Shown here: in pieces, positions 26,943 through 46,775 of the stretch | How the letters are laid out: each line of letters starts with the position of its first letter | Numbering within the stretch: the first letter of the stretch is position 1 | Source: Geodermatophilus sabuli | GTDB taxonomy: Bacteria > Actinomycetota > Actinomycetes > Mycobacteriales > Geodermatophilaceae | Assembly: GCF_010686765.1 (NCBI RefSeq) | Contig: NZ_JAAGWF010000012.1 | Span: 186,001-250,000 of the forward strand | Length of the DNA: 64,000 nt | Reading direction: 5' to 3' | Notes under the pieces: model-generated | What the model was told of the DNA's origin: nothing | Seen by the model: only the letters and a program-made list of their open reading frames with translations | The model's database searches: none | Position numbers and translations under genes: made by a program

Positions 26943-27692
26943 TCAGGCCATGGCGGGTACCGCGGCGTCCGCAGCCTGGAGGATGAGCTGTGTCGCGGCC
27001 TCCGGCTGCGACACCATCGAGGCGTGGGAGGCCGGCACCTCCTGGATCCGGGCGTGCGCACGCTCGGCCATGAACCGCTGGGTCGCGGCCGGGATCGCCC
27101 TGTCCTCCGTGCAGAGCAGGTACCAGGACGGGATCGTCCGCCAGGCCGGCGGGCCCGACGGCTCGTAGAACCCGGCACCGCTCCACGGTCGCTGCGTCGC
27201 GGCCATGACGTCGGCCGTGTCGCGGTCGACGTCGGCGGCGAAGGCCGCGTGGAACTGCTCGGTGTCCAGGTAGAGGTCCTGGCCGGCCTCGCTCCCGTCC
27301 GGACCGGTGAACGGCTGGGGTCGGATGGCCGCGCCTGCGAGGCTGCCCTCGCCGCGCTCCTCGAACACCTGCGCGATGCTCTCGCCCTCGTCGGGCATCC
27401 ACCCGCTGAAGTAGACGAGCGCCTTGACCTGCTCGTTCCCCGTCGCGGCGACCGAGATCACCGCGCCGCCGTAGGAGTGCCCCACGAGGACGAGCGGCCC
27501 GGCCAGGGTCCGCAGGTGGTCGGCCAGGTACCTCGCGTCGTCCGCGAGCCCGCGGAGCGGGTTGGCGAACCCCATGGCCCGGAAGCCGCGGTCCCGGAGG
27601 GCGCGGATCTCCGCCGCGAAGCCCGAGGCGTCGGCCCAGGCGCCGTGGACGAGGACGATCGTCGGCTTGGTCTCGCCGGACTGGGTGGTCAT
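26943..27692 (-). CDS. Alpha/beta hydrolase
   Basis: 249 residues from the ATG at 27692, which has GAGGAG upstream. Features: IVLVHGAWADASGF (oxyanion strand) near residue 15, the nucleophile elbow LVLVGHSYGGAVIS with Ser near 84, and a C-terminal His region (PASHASMVSQPEAATQLIL). The HGAWADAS to GHSYGG pattern places it with the small esterases of the salicylate-esterase/RsbQ-like group common in soil actinobacteria. The substrate is unknown. It is divergent from the DUF4062-STAND gene. Confidence 0.9.
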   Translation of the reverse strand: MTTQSGETKPTIVLVHGAWADASGFAAEIRALRDRGFRAMGFANPLRGLADDARYLADHLRTLAGPLVLVGHSYGGAVISVAATGNEQVKALVYFSGWMPDEGESIAQVFEERGEGSLAGAAIRPQPFTGPDGSEAGQDLYLDTEQFHAAFAADVDRDTADVMAATQRPWSGAGFYEPSGPPAWRTIPSWYLLCTEDRAIPAATQRFMAERAHARIQEVPASHASMVSQPEAATQLILQAADAAVPAMA

Positions 27693-27979: not shown

Positions 27980-30568
27980 ATGACGGTGGACGAGCAGGAC
28001 ATGGTGGCGATCCGGACCCCGGACCAGCGACTGCGCGTCTTCGTGAGCTCCACGCTCGCGGAGCTCGCGGAGGAGCGGGCAGCGGTCGCGCGGGCGATCA
28101 CGGCGCTCCGGCTCACACCGGTCATGTTCGAGCTCGGCGCTCGACCGCACCCACCCCGCGAGCTGTACCGGGCCTACCTCGCGCAGTCGGACGTCTTCGT
28201 CGGTCTGTACTGGCAGCGCTACGGCTGGATCGGGCCCGGCATGGACGTCTCGGGTCTCGAGGACGAGTTCCGGCTCTCCGGCTCGATCCCCCGGCTGCTC
28301 TACCTCAAGGAACCGGCACCGGAGCGGGAAGCCCGGCTGACGGCCATGATCACCGAGCTCCAGGCGGAGGGAGCCGACTCCTACCGCCAGTTCCGCACCC
28401 CGCGCGAGCTGGCCCGGCTGGTCCGCGACGACCTCGCCCTGCTCCTGAGCGAACGGTTCGCCTCCGCGGCCCGTGTCGCCGATGCCGGCGCGGCCGCGTC
28501 CCCGGCCGCGGACCGGCCCGGTTCCCGGTCCCTGCCGACGACGTCGACGTCGTTGATCGGGCGCGAGCAGGACATCGCCGACGTCGCCGGCCTGCTCCGG
28601 TCGCCGGGGGTGCGGCTGGTGACCCTGACCGGCCCCGGTGGCGTCGGCAAGACGCGGCTCGCGATCGCCGTCGCCGAACGTCTCGAGGGCTCCTACCCGC
28701 GTGGCGCGACGTTCGTCCCGCTGGCCTCGATCAGCGAGCCGGCGCTGGTGCTGCCGCGCATCGCCGCCGTGGTCGGCGCCACCATCGACGGTCCACGCCG
28801 GCCCCTGGACGTCCTGGTCGAGCGCCTCGCGGACGAGCCGACGCTGCTCGTGCTGGACAACCTCGAACAGCTCGTCGACGTGGCCGCCGACCTCGACCAG
28901 CTCCTCGCCCGGTGCGCGGGGCTGACGATCCTCGTCACGAGCCGCACCGCACTCCGGCTGCGGGCCGAGCACGAGTACCCGGTCGGCGCGCTCACGGTGC
29001 CGGCCTTCCCGGAACGTCCGGGAGTGGCGGAGCTGGCCGCGCTGCCCGCCGTCCGGCTCTTCGCCGACCGGGCCCGGGCCGTGCGGTACGACTTCGAGCT
29101 GACCGGGGACAACGCGCCGGCCGTCGCGGAGATCTGCCGCCGGCTCGACGGACTGCCGCTCGCCATCGAACTCGCGGCCGCCCGCAGTCGGCTGCTGGAC
29201 CCGGCGGCACTGCTGGCCCGGCTCGGACGCCGCCTCGACGCCCTGGGCCCCGGGCCGGTCGATCTCCCCGAACGCCAGCGCACCCTCCGGGCGACCGTCG
29301 AGTGGAGCGTCGGGCTGCTGGAGGACGACGAGCAGCAGATGCTGGCGACCCTGTCGGTGTTCCTCGAGGGATGGACCGTCGAGGCGGCCACCGCCGTCTC
29401 CGGCCTCCCCGAGGACCGGACGCTCGACCTGCTCGACGAACTCTCCGGGCACAGCCTGGTGACCATCGACGTCACCGACGACGGTCCGCGGTTCGGCATG
29501 CTGGGCTCGGTCCGGGAGCTCGCCGCCGAGCGCCTCGCCGGCCGGGCGGACCGGGCCGACGTCGAGCGGCGGCACGCCGCGTACTTCCGTGCGCTCGTGG
29601 AGGACGCCGACTGGCCCGCCGAGCGCCAGGGCGAGTGGGCCGACCGGTGGCAGACCGAGGAGGAGAACCTGCGGGTCGCCATCCGCTGGTTCTGCACGCA
29701 CGACATCGCGCCGCTGCCGCACCTGTTCCGCATCCTCTGGCTGTTCTGGCAGATGCGCGGACGCATGCCGGAGGCGAGGGCCTGGATCGACGAGGTGCAG
29801 CGCCGGGCCGACGCACTGGACGAGCGGGCACGAGCCGAGCTGTTGTTCACCTCGGCCATCACCGCCGTCGAGGTCGGTGACGACGACAGTGCACTGGCCG
29901 CCGTCGACCAGCTCCGCGCACTCCCAGCCCACGTCGACGACCCGTACCTGGAGAGCGCCGCCCAGCTGGCGATCTCCTGGATCCTGCCCGCCGTCGACGA
30001 CCTCGACGGAGCCCTCCGGGCCGCCTCCGCCGCACTGGACGGCTTCCGCCGGCAGGACGTGCCCTTCCTGGCCTTCGCGGCGCTCACGGTCGGCGGGGTC
30101 GAGCTGGCGCTCGGCCGGGACGAGGCCGCCCGCGCGCACCTCGTGGAGGTCGCCGAGCTCGGCCGCCGGTTCGGCAACACCTGGCTCACGTCGGCGGCCC
30201 GGAGCCAGCTCGCCGGGATCGAGGTGACCTCCGGTCACCTCGAGGAGGCTCGCGCACTGCTGCGGGATTCCGTGGCCGCGGGCGAGGAGACCGAGGTCGC
30301 CACCATCACCCTGACCTTCTCGCTCGTCGCCGCTGCCCAGCTGGCGCTGGCCCGCGGTGAGGCGGTGCAGGCTGCCCGGGCACTCGGCGCAGCCGAGGGC
30401 CTGCGCCGGCGGGCGGGCCTGCGGGCGTGGCCGGCGAGGCGGCGAGCCGAGGCAGACCTGGTCGCCCGAGTGGCGCAGGAACTCGGCGCCGGGGACTACG
30501 AGGACGCCGTCGCCGTGGGTGCCCGCTCCAGTCACCGGGAGGCGGTCGCCCTCGTCCGTCGCGCCTAG
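27980..30568 (+). CDS. DUF4062-STAND ATPase-TPR protein
   Basis: 862 residues. Residues 15-105 are a DUF4062 domain (LRVFVSSTLAELAEERAAV to DVFVGLYWQRYGW). Then comes a STAND/NB-ARC-type ATPase: Walker A TGPGGVGKTRLA near 217, Walker B TLLVLDNLEQLVD near 291, an ILVTSRTALRLRAEHEY sensor near 316 and GLPLAIELAAARSRLL near 391. A winged-helix-like part and TPR-like helical repeats fill about 450-860. No DNA-binding domain is present, unlike AfsR or LuxR-type STAND regulators. STAND proteins assemble on binding a signal; several are anti-phage sensors, others regulate metabolism. Which applies is unknown. The start is the ATG at 27980 with GAGGAC upstream. Confidence 0.9.
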   Translation: MTVDEQDMVAIRTPDQRLRVFVSSTLAELAEERAAVARAITALRLTPVMFELGARPHPPRELYRAYLAQSDVFVGLYWQRYGWIGPGMDVSGLEDEFRLSGSIPRLLYLKEPAPEREARLTAMITELQAEGADSYRQFRTPRELARLVRDDLALLLSERFASAARVADAGAAASPAADRPGSRSLPTTSTSLIGREQDIADVAGLLRSPGVRLVTLTGPGGVGKTRLAIAVAERLEGSYPRGATFVPLASISEPALVLPRIAAVVGATIDGPRRPLDVLVERLADEPTLLVLDNLEQLVDVAADLDQLLARCAGLTILVTSRTALRLRAEHEYPVGALTVPAFPERPGVAELAALPAVRLFADRARAVRYDFELTGDNAPAVAEICRRLDGLPLAIELAAARSRLLDPAALLARLGRRLDALGPGPVDLPERQRTLRATVEWSVGLLEDDEQQMLATLSVFLEGWTVEAATAVSGLPEDRTLDLLDELSGHSLVTIDVTDDGPRFGMLGSVRELAAERLAGRADRADVERRHAAYFRALVEDADWPAERQGEWADRWQTEEENLRVAIRWFCTHDIAPLPHLFRILWLFWQMRGRMPEARAWIDEVQRRADALDERARAELLFTSAITAVEVGDDDSALAAVDQLRALPAHVDDPYLESAAQLAISWILPAVDDLDGALRAASAALDGFRRQDVPFLAFAALTVGGVELALGRDEAARAHLVEVAELGRRFGNTWLTSAARSQLAGIEVTSGHLEEARALLRDSVAAGEETEVATITLTFSLVAAAQLALARGEAVQAARALGAAEGLRRRAGLRAWPARRRAEADLVARVAQELGAGDYEDAVAVGARSSHREAVALVRRA

Positions 30569-43940: not shown

Positions 43941-46775
43941 GTGGGGACCGCCACCCGATCCGCCGGCGACCCCGCGTTCGTCGGCCGCACCGCCGAGCTG
44001 GCGCAGCTGACGGCGGGCATCGCCGCGGCCGCGGCCGGCCGGGGCGGTCTGTTCCTGCTCTCCGGGCCGGCGGGCATCGGCAAGACGCGCACCGTCGAGG
44101 AGGCGGTGGCCGACGCGCCCGCCGTCGCCTGGGGGCGGTGCGTGGACGACCCCGGCGCCCCGCCGCTGTGGCCGTGGCGCCGGGTGGCCCGGGCGCTGCC
44201 GGGGGTGCGGGCGGCCGTCGCCGAGGCCCTGTCGGGCATCGACCTGGCCCGCGAGGGGTCCGCCGACCCGGAGGCCGCGCGCTTCGCGCTGGTCACGACC
44301 GCCACCGAGGCGCTGCTGGACGCGGCCGAGCCGGACGGCGTGGTCGTCGTCCTGGAGGACCTGCACTGGGCGGACGAGACCTCGCTGCGGCTGCTCCGCC
44401 ACCTGGCCGGCGAGCTGCAGCGCTCCCGGCTGCTCGTCGTCGGCACCTACCGCGACCCGGCGGGCGGGGCGGAGGGCCGACCGCTGGACCGGACGCTGCC
44501 CGACCTGCTCCGCTGGCCCACCACGCGTGCGCTGGCACTGGCCCCGCTCACCGAGGAGGACGTCCGGGCCTACCTGCCCGATGCGCCGCTGGAGGCGGTC
44601 CGCGTCGCCCACCGGCGCAGCGGCGGCAACCCGCTCTACCTGCGGGCGGTCGCCCGGACGCCCGCGTCCGGCGACGGTGACGGCGGCACCGAGCTGCGCC
44701 ACCTGGTCCGGACGACGCTGACGGCGCTGTCCCCCGCGGTCCTCGACCTGCTCGACACCGCCGCGGTCCTGGGCGAGGAGGTGGACGCCGGCCGGCTGGC
44801 CCTGGTGACCGGGCGGCCGCCGGACGAGGTGCGCGACGGGCTGGACGCCGCGGTCCGGGCGGGCGTCCTGACCGCCGTCCCGGACACCCCCGGCAGACGG
44901 CGGTTCGCGCACGCGGTGGTGCGCGACGCGATCTACGGCGACCTCTCCCCCAGCACGCGCGAGGAACTGCACCGCCGCAGCGCCGAGGCGCTGGAGCAGG
45001 TCGCCGACGACGACGACACCGCGGCCGGGCTGGTCGCCGGGCACTGGCTCCGGGCGGCCACGGAGCGGGCCACGCTGCGGCGGGCGGCGTCCTGGGCTCG
45101 CCGCGCGGCGGACGCGGCGACCGGGTCGCTCGCCTTCGACGAGGCGGCCCGGTTCCTCGCGATGGCGCTGGCCGCCACCGACCGCGCCGGCCCCGCCCTC
45201 GGGGACCGGGCCGAGCTGCTGCTGGAGCTCGCGACGGCGGAGTTCCGCGCCGGGCGGTTCGGCGAGAGCCTGGAGCACGCCACCGCCGCCTCCGACGCCG
45301 CGGCCGAGTGCGGACGCACCGACCTGCTGGCCCCCGCCGCGCTGACCGTCCAGGACGTGGCGGCACCCGGGTTCCCGCCGGCGGTCCTCCGCATGTGCGA
45401 GCGGGCGCTGGCGGACCCGTCCGTGGCGGGGCGGCCGGCGCTGCGGGCCCGGCTGCTCGCCCAGGCGGCCTCGGTGCTGGCCGACGCGGGACGGGGAACC
45501 GCCTCGACGGTGCACTCGACGCAGGCCCTGACCCTGGCGGAGGAGAGCGGCGACCCGCAGGCCGTCATCGACGCCGTCCGCGCCCGGATGAAGGCGCACC
45601 CCACCGCGCTGCCGCGGGCCGAACGGCTCCGCCTGGGCCGGCTGGCGATCGACCACGCGGCGGCGACCGGTCAGCCGCTGGCCGAGCTGTGGGGCGCCAA
45701 GTGGCGGATCGACGCGGCGCTCGAGGGCGGCGACACGGCCACCGTCGAGGACGAACTGGCCCGCGTCACCGCGCTGGCGCGGCGCACCCGCCTGCCGCTG
45801 GTCCGGTGGCACGACCTGCGGCTGCGGGCGTCGGTCGCCGCGCTGTACGGGCGGTTCGAGGAGGCGCTCGCGCTCAACGAGGAGGCCCGGGTCGTGGGCG
45901 CGACCGAGCTGACCCAGGACCTGTCCGCGGCGGGCATGTCGGGCGCGTTCCTGTACCAGTACTCGCTGGTCACGGGGATCGCGCACGACCTGGAGGGCGA
46001 GGCGGTCAGCCTCATGGACCTCGCCGACGACGTGCCGATCGTGCAGGCGAGCCGGACGGTCGTCGCCCTGGTCAACGGGCGCCGGGACGAGGCCGCGGCC
46101 CGGTACGCGCAGCTGCGCCCCCGGATGGCCGAGCCGGACTTCGTGGAGTCGGCGGGTGTGGCGGAGACGCTGGTGCCGCTGGTCGAGGAGTTCGGCGACG
46201 CAGCGGCGGCGGAGGCGCTCGGCGCGATCATCGGCGCGATGCCCATGGACGCCGGGGGCGCGGGCGTCTACTGCTGCGGCTCCCTGGAGGTCCTGCTCGG
46301 CCGGCTCGCCGCGGTGCGGGGCCGGTGGGACGAGGCGGTCGGGCACTTCGACGCGGCGCTGGCGGTGGACTCCCGCACCGGCGCCCGCCCGGCCGCCGTC
46401 AACGACCGGCTGGGGCTGGCGGGGGCACTCCTCGAGCGGGGCCGGGCCGCCGACCTGCCCCGGGCGCACGAGCTGGCGCGGACGGCGCTGGCCGAGGCCC
46501 GGCGCCTCGGCATGCCGGGGCCGGCGGGCCGGGCCGCCGCCCTCGTCGAGCGGGCCGGCCGGGCGGCGCGCGCCGCGGACCCGCTCACCGGCCGGGAGCG
46601 GGAGATCGCCACGCTCGTCGCCGCGGCCCTCACCAACCGCCAGATCGCCGACCGGCTGGTGCTCTCGGAGCGGACCATCGAGAGCCACGTGCGCAACATC
46701 CTGGCCAAGCTCGGCCTCGCCAACCGCACCGAGATCGCGACCGTGACGGCCGCGCACGGCCGGGCCCGCTCCTGA
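43941..46775 (+). CDS. LuxR-family ATPase regulator (LAL type)
   Basis: 944 residues. An N-terminal ATPase domain (FVGRTAELAQL, Walker A SGPAGIGKTRTVEEA near 43, Walker B VVVVLEDLHWADE near 137) is followed by about 550 residues of helical repeats and a C-terminal LuxR helix-turn-helix, LTGREREIATLVAAALTNRQIADRLVLSERTIESHVRNILAKL near 880-925. Large ATP-binding LuxR (LAL) regulators control secondary metabolism or sugar use in actinobacteria; the target here is unknown. GATACT at 43928-43933 lies seven bases before the GTG, so the message may be leaderless. It is inserted on the opposite strand between hemG and hemQ. Confidence 0.92.
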   Translation: MGTATRSAGDPAFVGRTAELAQLTAGIAAAAAGRGGLFLLSGPAGIGKTRTVEEAVADAPAVAWGRCVDDPGAPPLWPWRRVARALPGVRAAVAEALSGIDLAREGSADPEAARFALVTTATEALLDAAEPDGVVVVLEDLHWADETSLRLLRHLAGELQRSRLLVVGTYRDPAGGAEGRPLDRTLPDLLRWPTTRALALAPLTEEDVRAYLPDAPLEAVRVAHRRSGGNPLYLRAVARTPASGDGDGGTELRHLVRTTLTALSPAVLDLLDTAAVLGEEVDAGRLALVTGRPPDEVRDGLDAAVRAGVLTAVPDTPGRRRFAHAVVRDAIYGDLSPSTREELHRRSAEALEQVADDDDTAAGLVAGHWLRAATERATLRRAASWARRAADAATGSLAFDEAARFLAMALAATDRAGPALGDRAELLLELATAEFRAGRFGESLEHATAASDAAAECGRTDLLAPAALTVQDVAAPGFPPAVLRMCERALADPSVAGRPALRARLLAQAASVLADAGRGTASTVHSTQALTLAEESGDPQAVIDAVRARMKAHPTALPRAERLRLGRLAIDHAAATGQPLAELWGAKWRIDAALEGGDTATVEDELARVTALARRTRLPLVRWHDLRLRASVAALYGRFEEALALNEEARVVGATELTQDLSAAGMSGAFLYQYSLVTGIAHDLEGEAVSLMDLADDVPIVQASRTVVALVNGRRDEAAARYAQLRPRMAEPDFVESAGVAETLVPLVEEFGDAAAAEALGAIIGAMPMDAGGAGVYCCGSLEVLLGRLAAVRGRWDEAVGHFDAALAVDSRTGARPAAVNDRLGLAGALLERGRAADLPRAHELARTALAEARRLGMPGPAGRAAALVERAGRAARAADPLTGREREIATLVAAALTNRQIADRLVLSERTIESHVRNILAKLGLANRTEIATVTAAHGRARS

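What the first reader, a model, noticed from the sequence alone, without database searches (positions are those of the whole stretch)
27980..30568. DUF4062-STAND-TPR protein lacking any DNA-binding domain
DUF4062 at the N-terminus, a STAND ATPase and a TPR-like sensor tail form the architecture of a signalling NTPase rather than a transcription factor. Comparable N-effector/STAND/repeat proteins include anti-phage sensors. It sits alone in an accessory stretch beside an integrase scar. This is the best candidate for an undescribed conflict or signalling system in the window.
Basis: partly seen in the sequence, partly recalled or inferred. Interest (0 to 1): 0.6.

Follow-up and report, generated by a model that had tools for sequence, protein, structure and literature searches.

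The report
Bacterial sensor with predicted NAD-destroying head
This gene encodes a large bacterial sensor protein that is built like animal and plant immune receptors and carries a predicted NAD-destroying enzyme where its bacterial cousins carry a DNA-binding part, so it may shut a cell down when it detects trouble.

Summary
The gene is real (27980-30568, +, 862 aa) and is DUF4062-STAND-TPR, with no DNA-binding domain detected. The "integrase scar" is not supported: no tyrosine-integrase match lies in the window.

The N-terminal domain is no longer unknown: a 2026 preprint (PMC13174449) shows that DUF4062 is a TIR-like NADase used in antiphage defence (Swarozyc) and in human TEP1. Here the fold is predicted (pLDDT 86.6) and groups with TIR and nucleoside/nucleotide hydrolases. 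The catalytic Glu maps to E96, present in 80 of 80 aligned domains. Residues 181-684 model as Apaf-1-like (Z 27.8), with NTPase motifs intact, running into a TPR array.

Best reading: a one-gene, NLR-like, STAND-gated NADase, a bacterial counterpart of the TEP1/NWD architecture, with the effector in place of the DNA-binding part of actinobacterial STAND transcription factors.

Against an antiphage role: no defence family recurs among window-clade neighbours (control 83), and close relatives were not found on viral contigs. NADase activity, trigger and phage protection are untested. Verdict: new variant of a known kind.

The parts
27980..30568 (+). DUF4062-STAND-TPR gene, 862 aa
28016..28459 (+). 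N-terminal DUF4062 / TIR-like domain (residues 13-160), predicted NAD(P) glycohydrolase effector
   Evidence: Pfam 5.6e-19; AF2 pLDDT 86.6; DNPH1 Z 14.7, plant TIR 12.8, SARM1 12.1; KpSwz 10wc E 6e-7, TEP1 11gz E 0.0039 by sequence
28250..28267 (+). motif SGLEDE (residues 91-96); E96 (codon 28265-28267) = predicted catalytic Glu, aligned with KpSwz E97
   Evidence: E96 80/80, S91 80/80, E94 76/80; E96 column Glu in 33 of 33 wild-type rows of a wider DUF4062 alignment
28547..29539 (+). NB-ARC/STAND module with winged helix (residues 190-520)
   Evidence: D293, T320-S321-R322, G391/P393/L394 invariant in 55 rows
28631..28654 (+). Walker A GPGGVGKT (residues 218-225)
   Evidence: G218, G220, G221, G223, K224 invariant in 55 rows; a Walker A motif in 71 of 71 homologues of at least 800 aa
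29540..30565 (+). alpha-helical TPR array (residues 521-862), predicted sensor; the fastest-evolving part
26943..27692 (-). divergent alpha/beta-hydrolase neighbour; possible but unproven partner
   Evidence: class commoner within 2 genes in the clade, post hoc

Best explanation
A self-contained NLR-like sensor. In the resting cell the NB-ARC/STAND module holds nucleotide and the TPR array keeps the protein inactive. When the TPR array binds its (unknown) trigger, nucleotide exchange lets the STAND modules oligomerise, which brings the N-terminal TIR-like domains together; these hydrolyse NAD+ (and perhaps NADP+) with E96 as the catalytic Glu, and the cell stops growing or dies. The likeliest use is abortive defence against phage or another invader. 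Shown here: domain anatomy, conserved catalytic and NTPase residues, strong constraint on the N-domain, faster-evolving TPRs, patchy distribution. Inferred: NADase activity (from the DUF4062 preprint), gating by STAND oligomerisation (from Apaf-1/NLR/TEP1 logic), ligand and antiphage role.
For: DUF4062 members KpSwz and TEP1 are NADases needing the equivalent Glu (PMC13174449). The window's N-domain profile finds those two proteins by sequence (E 6e-7 and 0.0039) and has the TIR/NDT fold. E96 is in 80 of 80 aligned domains and aligns with KpSwz E97 and with the Glu of diverse DUF4062 domains. STAND motifs are invariant and the model matches Apaf-1 Z 27.8, plant NRC2 24.9, a maltose-system chain that I take to be MalT (8bob, 23.3) and 6mfv 22.4. 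DUF4062 next to a NACHT is the TEP1/NWD/NPHP3 arrangement. Patchy: orthologue in 2 of 25 other genomes of the genus, DUF4062 in 15 of 26 and in 31 of 396 of the phylum; the 20-row clade spans four actinobacterial families plus MAGs of other phyla. TPR/STAND dN/dS ratio 1.45, against 1.05 in STAND-TPR-LuxR regulators of the same genus.
Against: No defence family recurs among neighbours (control 83). No relative on viral contigs; no plasmid or phage place covers 80% of the protein. In the preprint NWD1, NWD2 and NPHP3 (same DUF4062-NACHT order) showed no NADase activity. The closest solved folds listed are nucleotide hydrolases (DNPH1, MilB), ahead of TIRs. In the paralogue clade the N-domain is less constrained (median dN/dS 0.29, against 0.10 in the window clade). 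That clade, which includes the own-genome paralogue, is tied to a thioredoxin-reductase-like flavoprotein and a hydrophobic protein, which hints at redox or physiological signalling.
Confidence: 0.55

Rival explanations
1. Same machine, different job: a STAND-gated NADase/nucleosidase that answers a small molecule or a redox/metabolic state (stress or developmental signalling), not phage.
For: Sister clades carry a TrxR-like flavoprotein and/or a hydrophobic protein on 18 of 81 sources, in Geodermatophilaceae, Microbacteriaceae and one Frankiales MAG, with opposite gene orders. In the window clade 7 of 54 genes within two places are alpha/beta-hydrolases against 3 of 145 further out (post hoc). 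No recurrent defence family (79, 82, 83).
Against: Patchy presence even inside the genus; none of the window clade's 20 loci has the flavoprotein or hydrophobic partner at the thresholds used; faster TPR evolution.
Confidence: 0.25
2. The N-domain is a nucleotide N-glycosidase (DNPH1/MilB-like) that depletes (d)NMPs rather than an NADase.
For: DNPH1 is the best solved fold (Z 14.7) and MilB reaches 13.7, against 12.8 for the best TIR; the NDT/DNPH1/TIR families share a catalytic Glu (recalled; MilB E103A and CtNDT E88A entries appear).
Against: By sequence it is DUF4062 and finds KpSwz and TEP1, both NADases. Those two are not among the 50 rows listed, so a direct comparison of folds is lacking.
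Confidence: 0.12
3. The DUF4062 domain is catalytically inert and acts as an assembly or signalling platform, as may be so for NWD1/NWD2/NPHP3.
For: Three of four human DUF4062-NACHT proteins were inactive in vitro.
Against: E96 and S91 are invariant in 80 of 80; in the window clade the N-domain is the most constrained part, dN/dS 0.10.
Confidence: 0.08

Closest known systems
Swarozyc (KpSwz), DUF4062 TIR-like NADase antiphage protein (PMC13174449)
   Same: Effector domain family; catalytic Glu (E97 = E96 here)
   Different: KpSwz is short (PDB chain of 326 residues) and its C-terminal AUX HTH/winged domain binds the phage portal; here a STAND NTPase plus TPR array takes that place
Human TEP1 / NWD1 / NWD2 / NPHP3
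   Same: DUF4062 placed next to a STAND-class (NACHT) NTPase
   Different: Eukaryotic; several carry WD40 repeats rather than the TPRs found here; only TEP1 was active in vitro
TIR-AP-ATPase-TPR proteins of prokaryotic conflict systems (PMC7159879)
   Same: Order of effector, STAND NTPase and TPR
   Different: Canonical TIR rather than DUF4062; described there with vWA-MoxR ternary systems and peptide-processing genes. I did not search for those systems; one neighbour in the clade has a Pfam TCAD9 'ternary complex associated' domain
STAND transcription factors (MalT, AfsR/BTAD-STAND-TPR, STAND-TPR-LuxR)
   Same: STAND-TPR chassis; the three other own-genome matches are HTH_31-STAND, STAND-TPR-GerE and BTAD-STAND
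   Different: DNA-binding domain absent, TIR-like enzyme domain present
Apaf-1 / plant NLRs
   Same: NB-ARC fold (Z 27.8 and 24.9); N-terminal effector, C-terminal sensor
   Different: Other effectors (CARD, coiled coil, canonical TIR) and sensors (WD40, LRR) (recalled)

Membership tests
DUF4062 TIR-like NADase family (PF13271) | Pfam DUF4062 above the gathering score | tested here: met
   68.6 bits against 24.7
DUF4062 TIR-like NADase family (PF13271) | TIR/NDT-type fold | tested here: met
   pLDDT 86.6; Z 14.7 DNPH1, 12.8 plant TIR, 12.1 SARM1
DUF4062 TIR-like NADase family (PF13271) | catalytic Glu equivalent to KpSwz E97 | tested here: met
   E96, 80/80; aligned with the E97A position of KpSwz. 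HMMER's own alignment put a two-residue insert there
DUF4062 TIR-like NADase family (PF13271) | NAD+ hydrolysis | not testable with these tools
   needs purified protein
Swarozyc (KpSwz-type) | DUF4062 followed by an AUX HTH/winged portal-binding domain | tested here: not met
   DUF4062 is followed by an NB-ARC-like module and a TPR array
Swarozyc (KpSwz-type) | defence-gene neighbourhood | tested here: inconclusive
   No recurrent PADLOC family in 107 and 116 neighbours against 98 control proteins; the preprint reports about 20% of bacterial DUF4062 in predicted islands
Swarozyc (KpSwz-type) | portal-triggered abortive infection | not testable with these tools
   experiment
STAND NTPases (NB-ARC/AP-ATPase-like) | Walker A, Walker B, TSR and GxP motifs; winged helix | tested here: met
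   Invariant in 55 rows; Apaf-1 Z 27.8 over 434 residues; Pfam NB-ARC 22.7 bits, just under 23.5
STAND NTPases (NB-ARC/AP-ATPase-like) | nucleotide-dependent oligomerisation | not testable with these tools
   experiment
Catalogued antiphage proteins, incl. Avs-type STANDs (PADLOC 2.0.0) | match to a catalogued defence-protein model | tested here: not met
   Only mad8, E 0.097, over the P-loop; the library dates from 2023
STAND transcription factors | DNA-binding domain (LuxR, HTH or BTAD) | tested here: not met
   None among the 15 families at E<=1
TIR-AP-ATPase-TPR conflict effectors | canonical TIR domain | tested here: inconclusive
   No Pfam TIR match, but TIR-class fold

The most novel reading that the evidence does not exclude
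A prokaryotic family of one-gene 'TEP1-like' receptors: DUF4062 NADase, STAND NTPase and TPR sensor, about 860 aa, in isolates of Actinomycetota, Thermomicrobiota and Myxococcota and in MAGs labelled Chloroflexota, Bacteroidota, Pseudomonadota and archaea. It arose by exchanging the DNA-binding output of bacterial STAND regulators for NAD+ destruction, and it works outside defence islands. One branch has acquired a flavoprotein and a hydrophobic partner, so that some members may gate NAD+ hydrolysis by redox state.
Probability: 0.35. Interest if true: 0.7.

Novelty: new variant of a known kind. Interest (0 to 1): 0.5.

Why it matters
DUF4062 beside a STAND NTPase is the arrangement of human TEP1, NWD1/2 and NPHP3, whose gating is only speculated upon in the preprint. 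A bacterial protein of 862 aa with the same two modules could make that gating testable. One genome also offers the STAND-TPR type of protein wired either to DNA binding or to a predicted NADase. And the gene lies where screens that rely on defence islands would not look.

Tried and rejected
Rejected: integrase scar (PF00589); a transcription factor. An empty-site comparison through pyruvate carboxylase failed: in the 12 congeners read, the genes around pyc are not those of the window, so insertion could not be shown.

Neighbour survey by PADLOC at E 1e-10: 107 of the 145 window-clade neighbours listed (80 families match; each of the 25 shown matches 1 member), 116 of the 145 listed for other clades (13 families, at most 2 members each), and 98 of 100 control proteins from pyc loci (40 families; the 25 shown match 5 members each, mostly kinase-type models). 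The tool does not give the number of members with any hit, so this is weak. The strongest single hits (DpdF 7.8e-188, PsyrT 1.3e-109) probably come from a RecQ-like helicase at L098:12259-13872, judged by its motifs only; mad3 may be an SNF2-like helicase (L085:7470-9596) and PD-T4-6 a protein kinase. A defence role of these single neighbours is not excluded. In one search single members match TIR-effector and HIT-family models at about 1e-10 to 1e-12.

Viral contigs: 59 pattern matches, 0 relatives. Phage records: 3, STAND-TPR part only. Plasmids: 292 records, none over 80% of the query; the 15 rows listed start at residue 185 or later, the other 277 were not seen. Against a wholly cellular picture, distant relatives of the N-domain do occur in phages: phrog_15411, E 1.1e-6, and a siphovirus 'deoxyribosyltransferase' model, TM 0.85.

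KpSwz and TEP1 structures are not among the 50 rows. Foldseek alone listed mainly flavodoxin-like and other alpha/beta folds with TM around 0.5. For the dN/dS control, one STAND-LuxR regulator had no match in 4 genomes at the limit set and another only matches of about 36%, so a third group was used; its BTAD outlier L221 was dropped. The wider DUF4062 alignment used 24 of 29 survey loci (L199, L201-L204 were left out beforehand as too divergent; 36 matches in the survey). One search read minus-strand loci on the wrong strand and was redone. The 79 named loci were found with N-domain peptide patterns, which inflates N-domain identity (64% mean pairwise); of the four sequences behind the dN/dS values, the window's own gene and those of G. 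sabuli and G. saharensis were also found by a full-length search. The alpha/beta-hydrolase count (Abhydrolase_6: 7 of 54 against 3 of 145, Fisher p 0.005; 0.010 or 0.019 if 4 or 5 of 145; the union over related families is not given) was noticed first and tested afterwards on the same loci (14 of the clade's 20, syntenic duplicates dropped; 2 of 147 distant proteins dropped for length), so it is a lead only. A search for the system's name gave 0 papers although the preprint is held; probably the name is printed with an accented letter.

Full report
What is there. The ORF at 27980-30568 (+) encodes 862 aa and is the one my gene caller picks. Pfam gives DUF4062 at 19-98 (E 5.6e-19), with sub-threshold STAND and TPR matches and no DNA-binding domain among the 15 families at E<=1. 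PADLOC and NCBIfam have nothing meaningful. The neighbours are ordinary: PucR-type regulator, DksA-type zinc finger, alpha/beta-hydrolase (divergent, 287 bases upstream), pyruvate carboxylase downstream. GC is uniform. No PF00589 integrase lies in the window.

What the head is. A preprint in the library (PMC13174449; outline, parts 1-2 of 6 of the text, found passages and the figure legends read) shows that DUF4062 is a TIR-like NADase: K. pneumoniae Swarozyc is activated by a phage portal and causes abortive infection through E97; human TEP1 is active through E1008, while NWD1, NWD2 and NPHP3 were not active. A profile of 80 N-domains finds KpSwz (E 6e-7) and TEP1 (E 0.0039) among solved chains. 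The AlphaFold model of residues 13-160 (pLDDT 86.6) matches DNPH1 (Z 14.7, rmsd 2.4, 125 aligned), MilB (13.7), a deoxyribosyltransferase (12.8), a plant TIR (12.8) and SARM1 (12.1). E96 is invariant in 80 of 80 and E94 present in 76 of 80. In a wider alignment (window, KpSwz, 8 homologues, 24 of 29 survey loci) the E96 column is Glu in all 33 rows other than the E97A mutant, which aligns there. HMMER's pairwise path placed a two-residue insert at that point, so the register rests on conservation and on the multiple alignment.

What the body is. The full-length model (55 sequences, pLDDT 84.9) aligns with Apaf-1 (Z 27.8), plant NRC2 (24.9), a maltose-system chain that I take to be MalT (23.3) and a STAND-TPR protein, 6mfv (22.4 over 548 residues). 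Walker A (five of its eight positions), D293, T320-S321-R322 and G391/P393 are invariant in 55 rows. In the same genome the three other matches carry HTH_31, LuxR or BTAD outputs; the nearest matches residues 163-621 at 46%. One MAG homologue (L130) has both DUF4062 and a LuxR end. So the output looks exchanged on a common chassis; the direction of the exchange was not tested.

Family and spread. From 342 confirmed relatives the best 80 (79 loci) were kept; 71 of the 79 encode proteins of at least 800 aa and all 71 have a Walker A motif. In the tree the window sits in a 20-row clade (100*) of Geodermatophilus, Blastococcus, Microbacterium, Catellatospora, Asanoa and Pseudonocardia with MAGs labelled Rokubacteria, Myxococcota, Acidobacteriota and Actinomycetota; the own-genome paralogue lies in another clade. 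MAG labels may reflect binning errors. In the genus, DUF4062 occurs in 15 of 26 genomes (23 matches) and the window's orthologue (76-79%) in 2 of the other 25; in the phylum, in 31 of 396, the window's genome included.

Neighbourhoods. The window clade has no conserved partner gene; shared sites occur within Microbacterium (five loci, between ftsY-like and smc genes), Catellatospora (two) and partly Asanoa. G. sabuli keeps a 61-aa remnant related to the window's alpha/beta-hydrolase beside its orthologue. Abhydrolase_6 proteins make up 7 of 54 genes within two places against 3 of 145 further out, a post hoc lead. Sister clades carry a Pyr_redox_2 flavoprotein (13 of 81 sources at 500 bits or more) and a Pfam-less hydrophobic protein (13 of 81 at 300 bits or more), 18 of 81 with either, divergent in Geodermatophilaceae and co-directional in Microbacteriaceae; none of the 20 window-clade loci has either. 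Defence models: no family recurs in the window-clade neighbours (107 proteins), at most two members in other clades (116), while control proteins (98) show kinase-type models in five; single strong hits are told under Tried and rejected. One downstream neighbour (probably L094:4808-6871, kinase-like by eye) has a TCAD9 domain, a name taken from ternary conflict systems; the term is not in the text of PMC7159879. A missing island does not exclude defence: in E. coli about 17% of known defence genes lie in islands (PMC13092281, passages).

Selection. Median dN/dS among four orthologues (6 pairs, not independent): N 0.10, STAND 0.29, TPR 0.43, last 142 residues 0.54; TPR/STAND ratio 1.45 (1.23-1.69). 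Paralogue clade (10 sequences, 45 pairs): N 0.29, STAND 0.38, TPR 0.51, ratio 1.46 (1.04-2.05). Control STAND-TPR-LuxR regulators (9 sequences, 36 pairs): STAND 0.38, TPR 0.36, ratio 1.05 (0.57-1.33). A constrained head and a faster tail fit a fixed executioner with a changing sensor, but relaxed constraint would look the same, and in the paralogue clade the head is less constrained.

Mechanism and status. The step from trigger to STAND oligomer to clustered NADase is inferred from Apaf-1, NLR and TIR biology and from the preprint's speculation for TEP1. The trigger is unknown. TIR-AP-ATPase-TPR proteins are already described in prokaryotic conflict systems (PMC7159879, passages; PMC8195603, passages). 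In the preprint's main text 'TPR' and 'Actinomycet' do not occur; its supplement was not read, so bacterial DUF4062-STAND members may be listed there. Of the 9 papers holding 'DUF4062' I opened only this one; the other paper searches showed no description of the bacterial architecture in their listings. Hence: a new variant of a known kind.

Noticed in passing
L039:5843-8351 (own genome C3) and 17 further loci: Sister DUF4062-STAND-TPR clades travel with a Pyr_redox_2 (thioredoxin-reductase-like) flavoprotein and/or a Pfam-less hydrophobic protein, in more than one chromosomal setting and two gene orders.
   Followed up: partly
L087, L089, L090, L096, L097: In five Microbacterium genomes the window-clade gene sits between ftsY-like and smc genes, an unusual place for a patchy gene.
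   Followed up: no
window 26943-27692; L086:9482-9667: Alpha/beta-hydrolases lie within two genes of window-clade genes more often than further out; G. sabuli has only a 61-aa remnant related to the window's hydrolase.
   Followed up: partly
L130:5280-8108: A Sphaerobacteraceae MAG protein carries DUF4062, NB-ARC, TPR and a LuxR DNA-binding end together, a possible intermediate between effector and transcription-factor types.
   Followed up: no
probably L094:4808-6871: Beside an Acidobacteriota-MAG member of the window clade lies a protein with a Pfam TCAD9 (ternary complex associated) domain; the scan names the family but not the member.
   Followed up: partly
window 43941-46775: A second large ATPase-TPR protein in the window is a LuxR-type regulator; no match at E<=1e-100 in 4 congeners.
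   Followed up: no
G005:C14:3457, G008:C12:477420: Two congeners carry DUF4062 in shorter open frames (382 and 376 codons) with the strongest Pfam scores in the genus; they may be Swarozyc-like and were not read.
   Followed up: no
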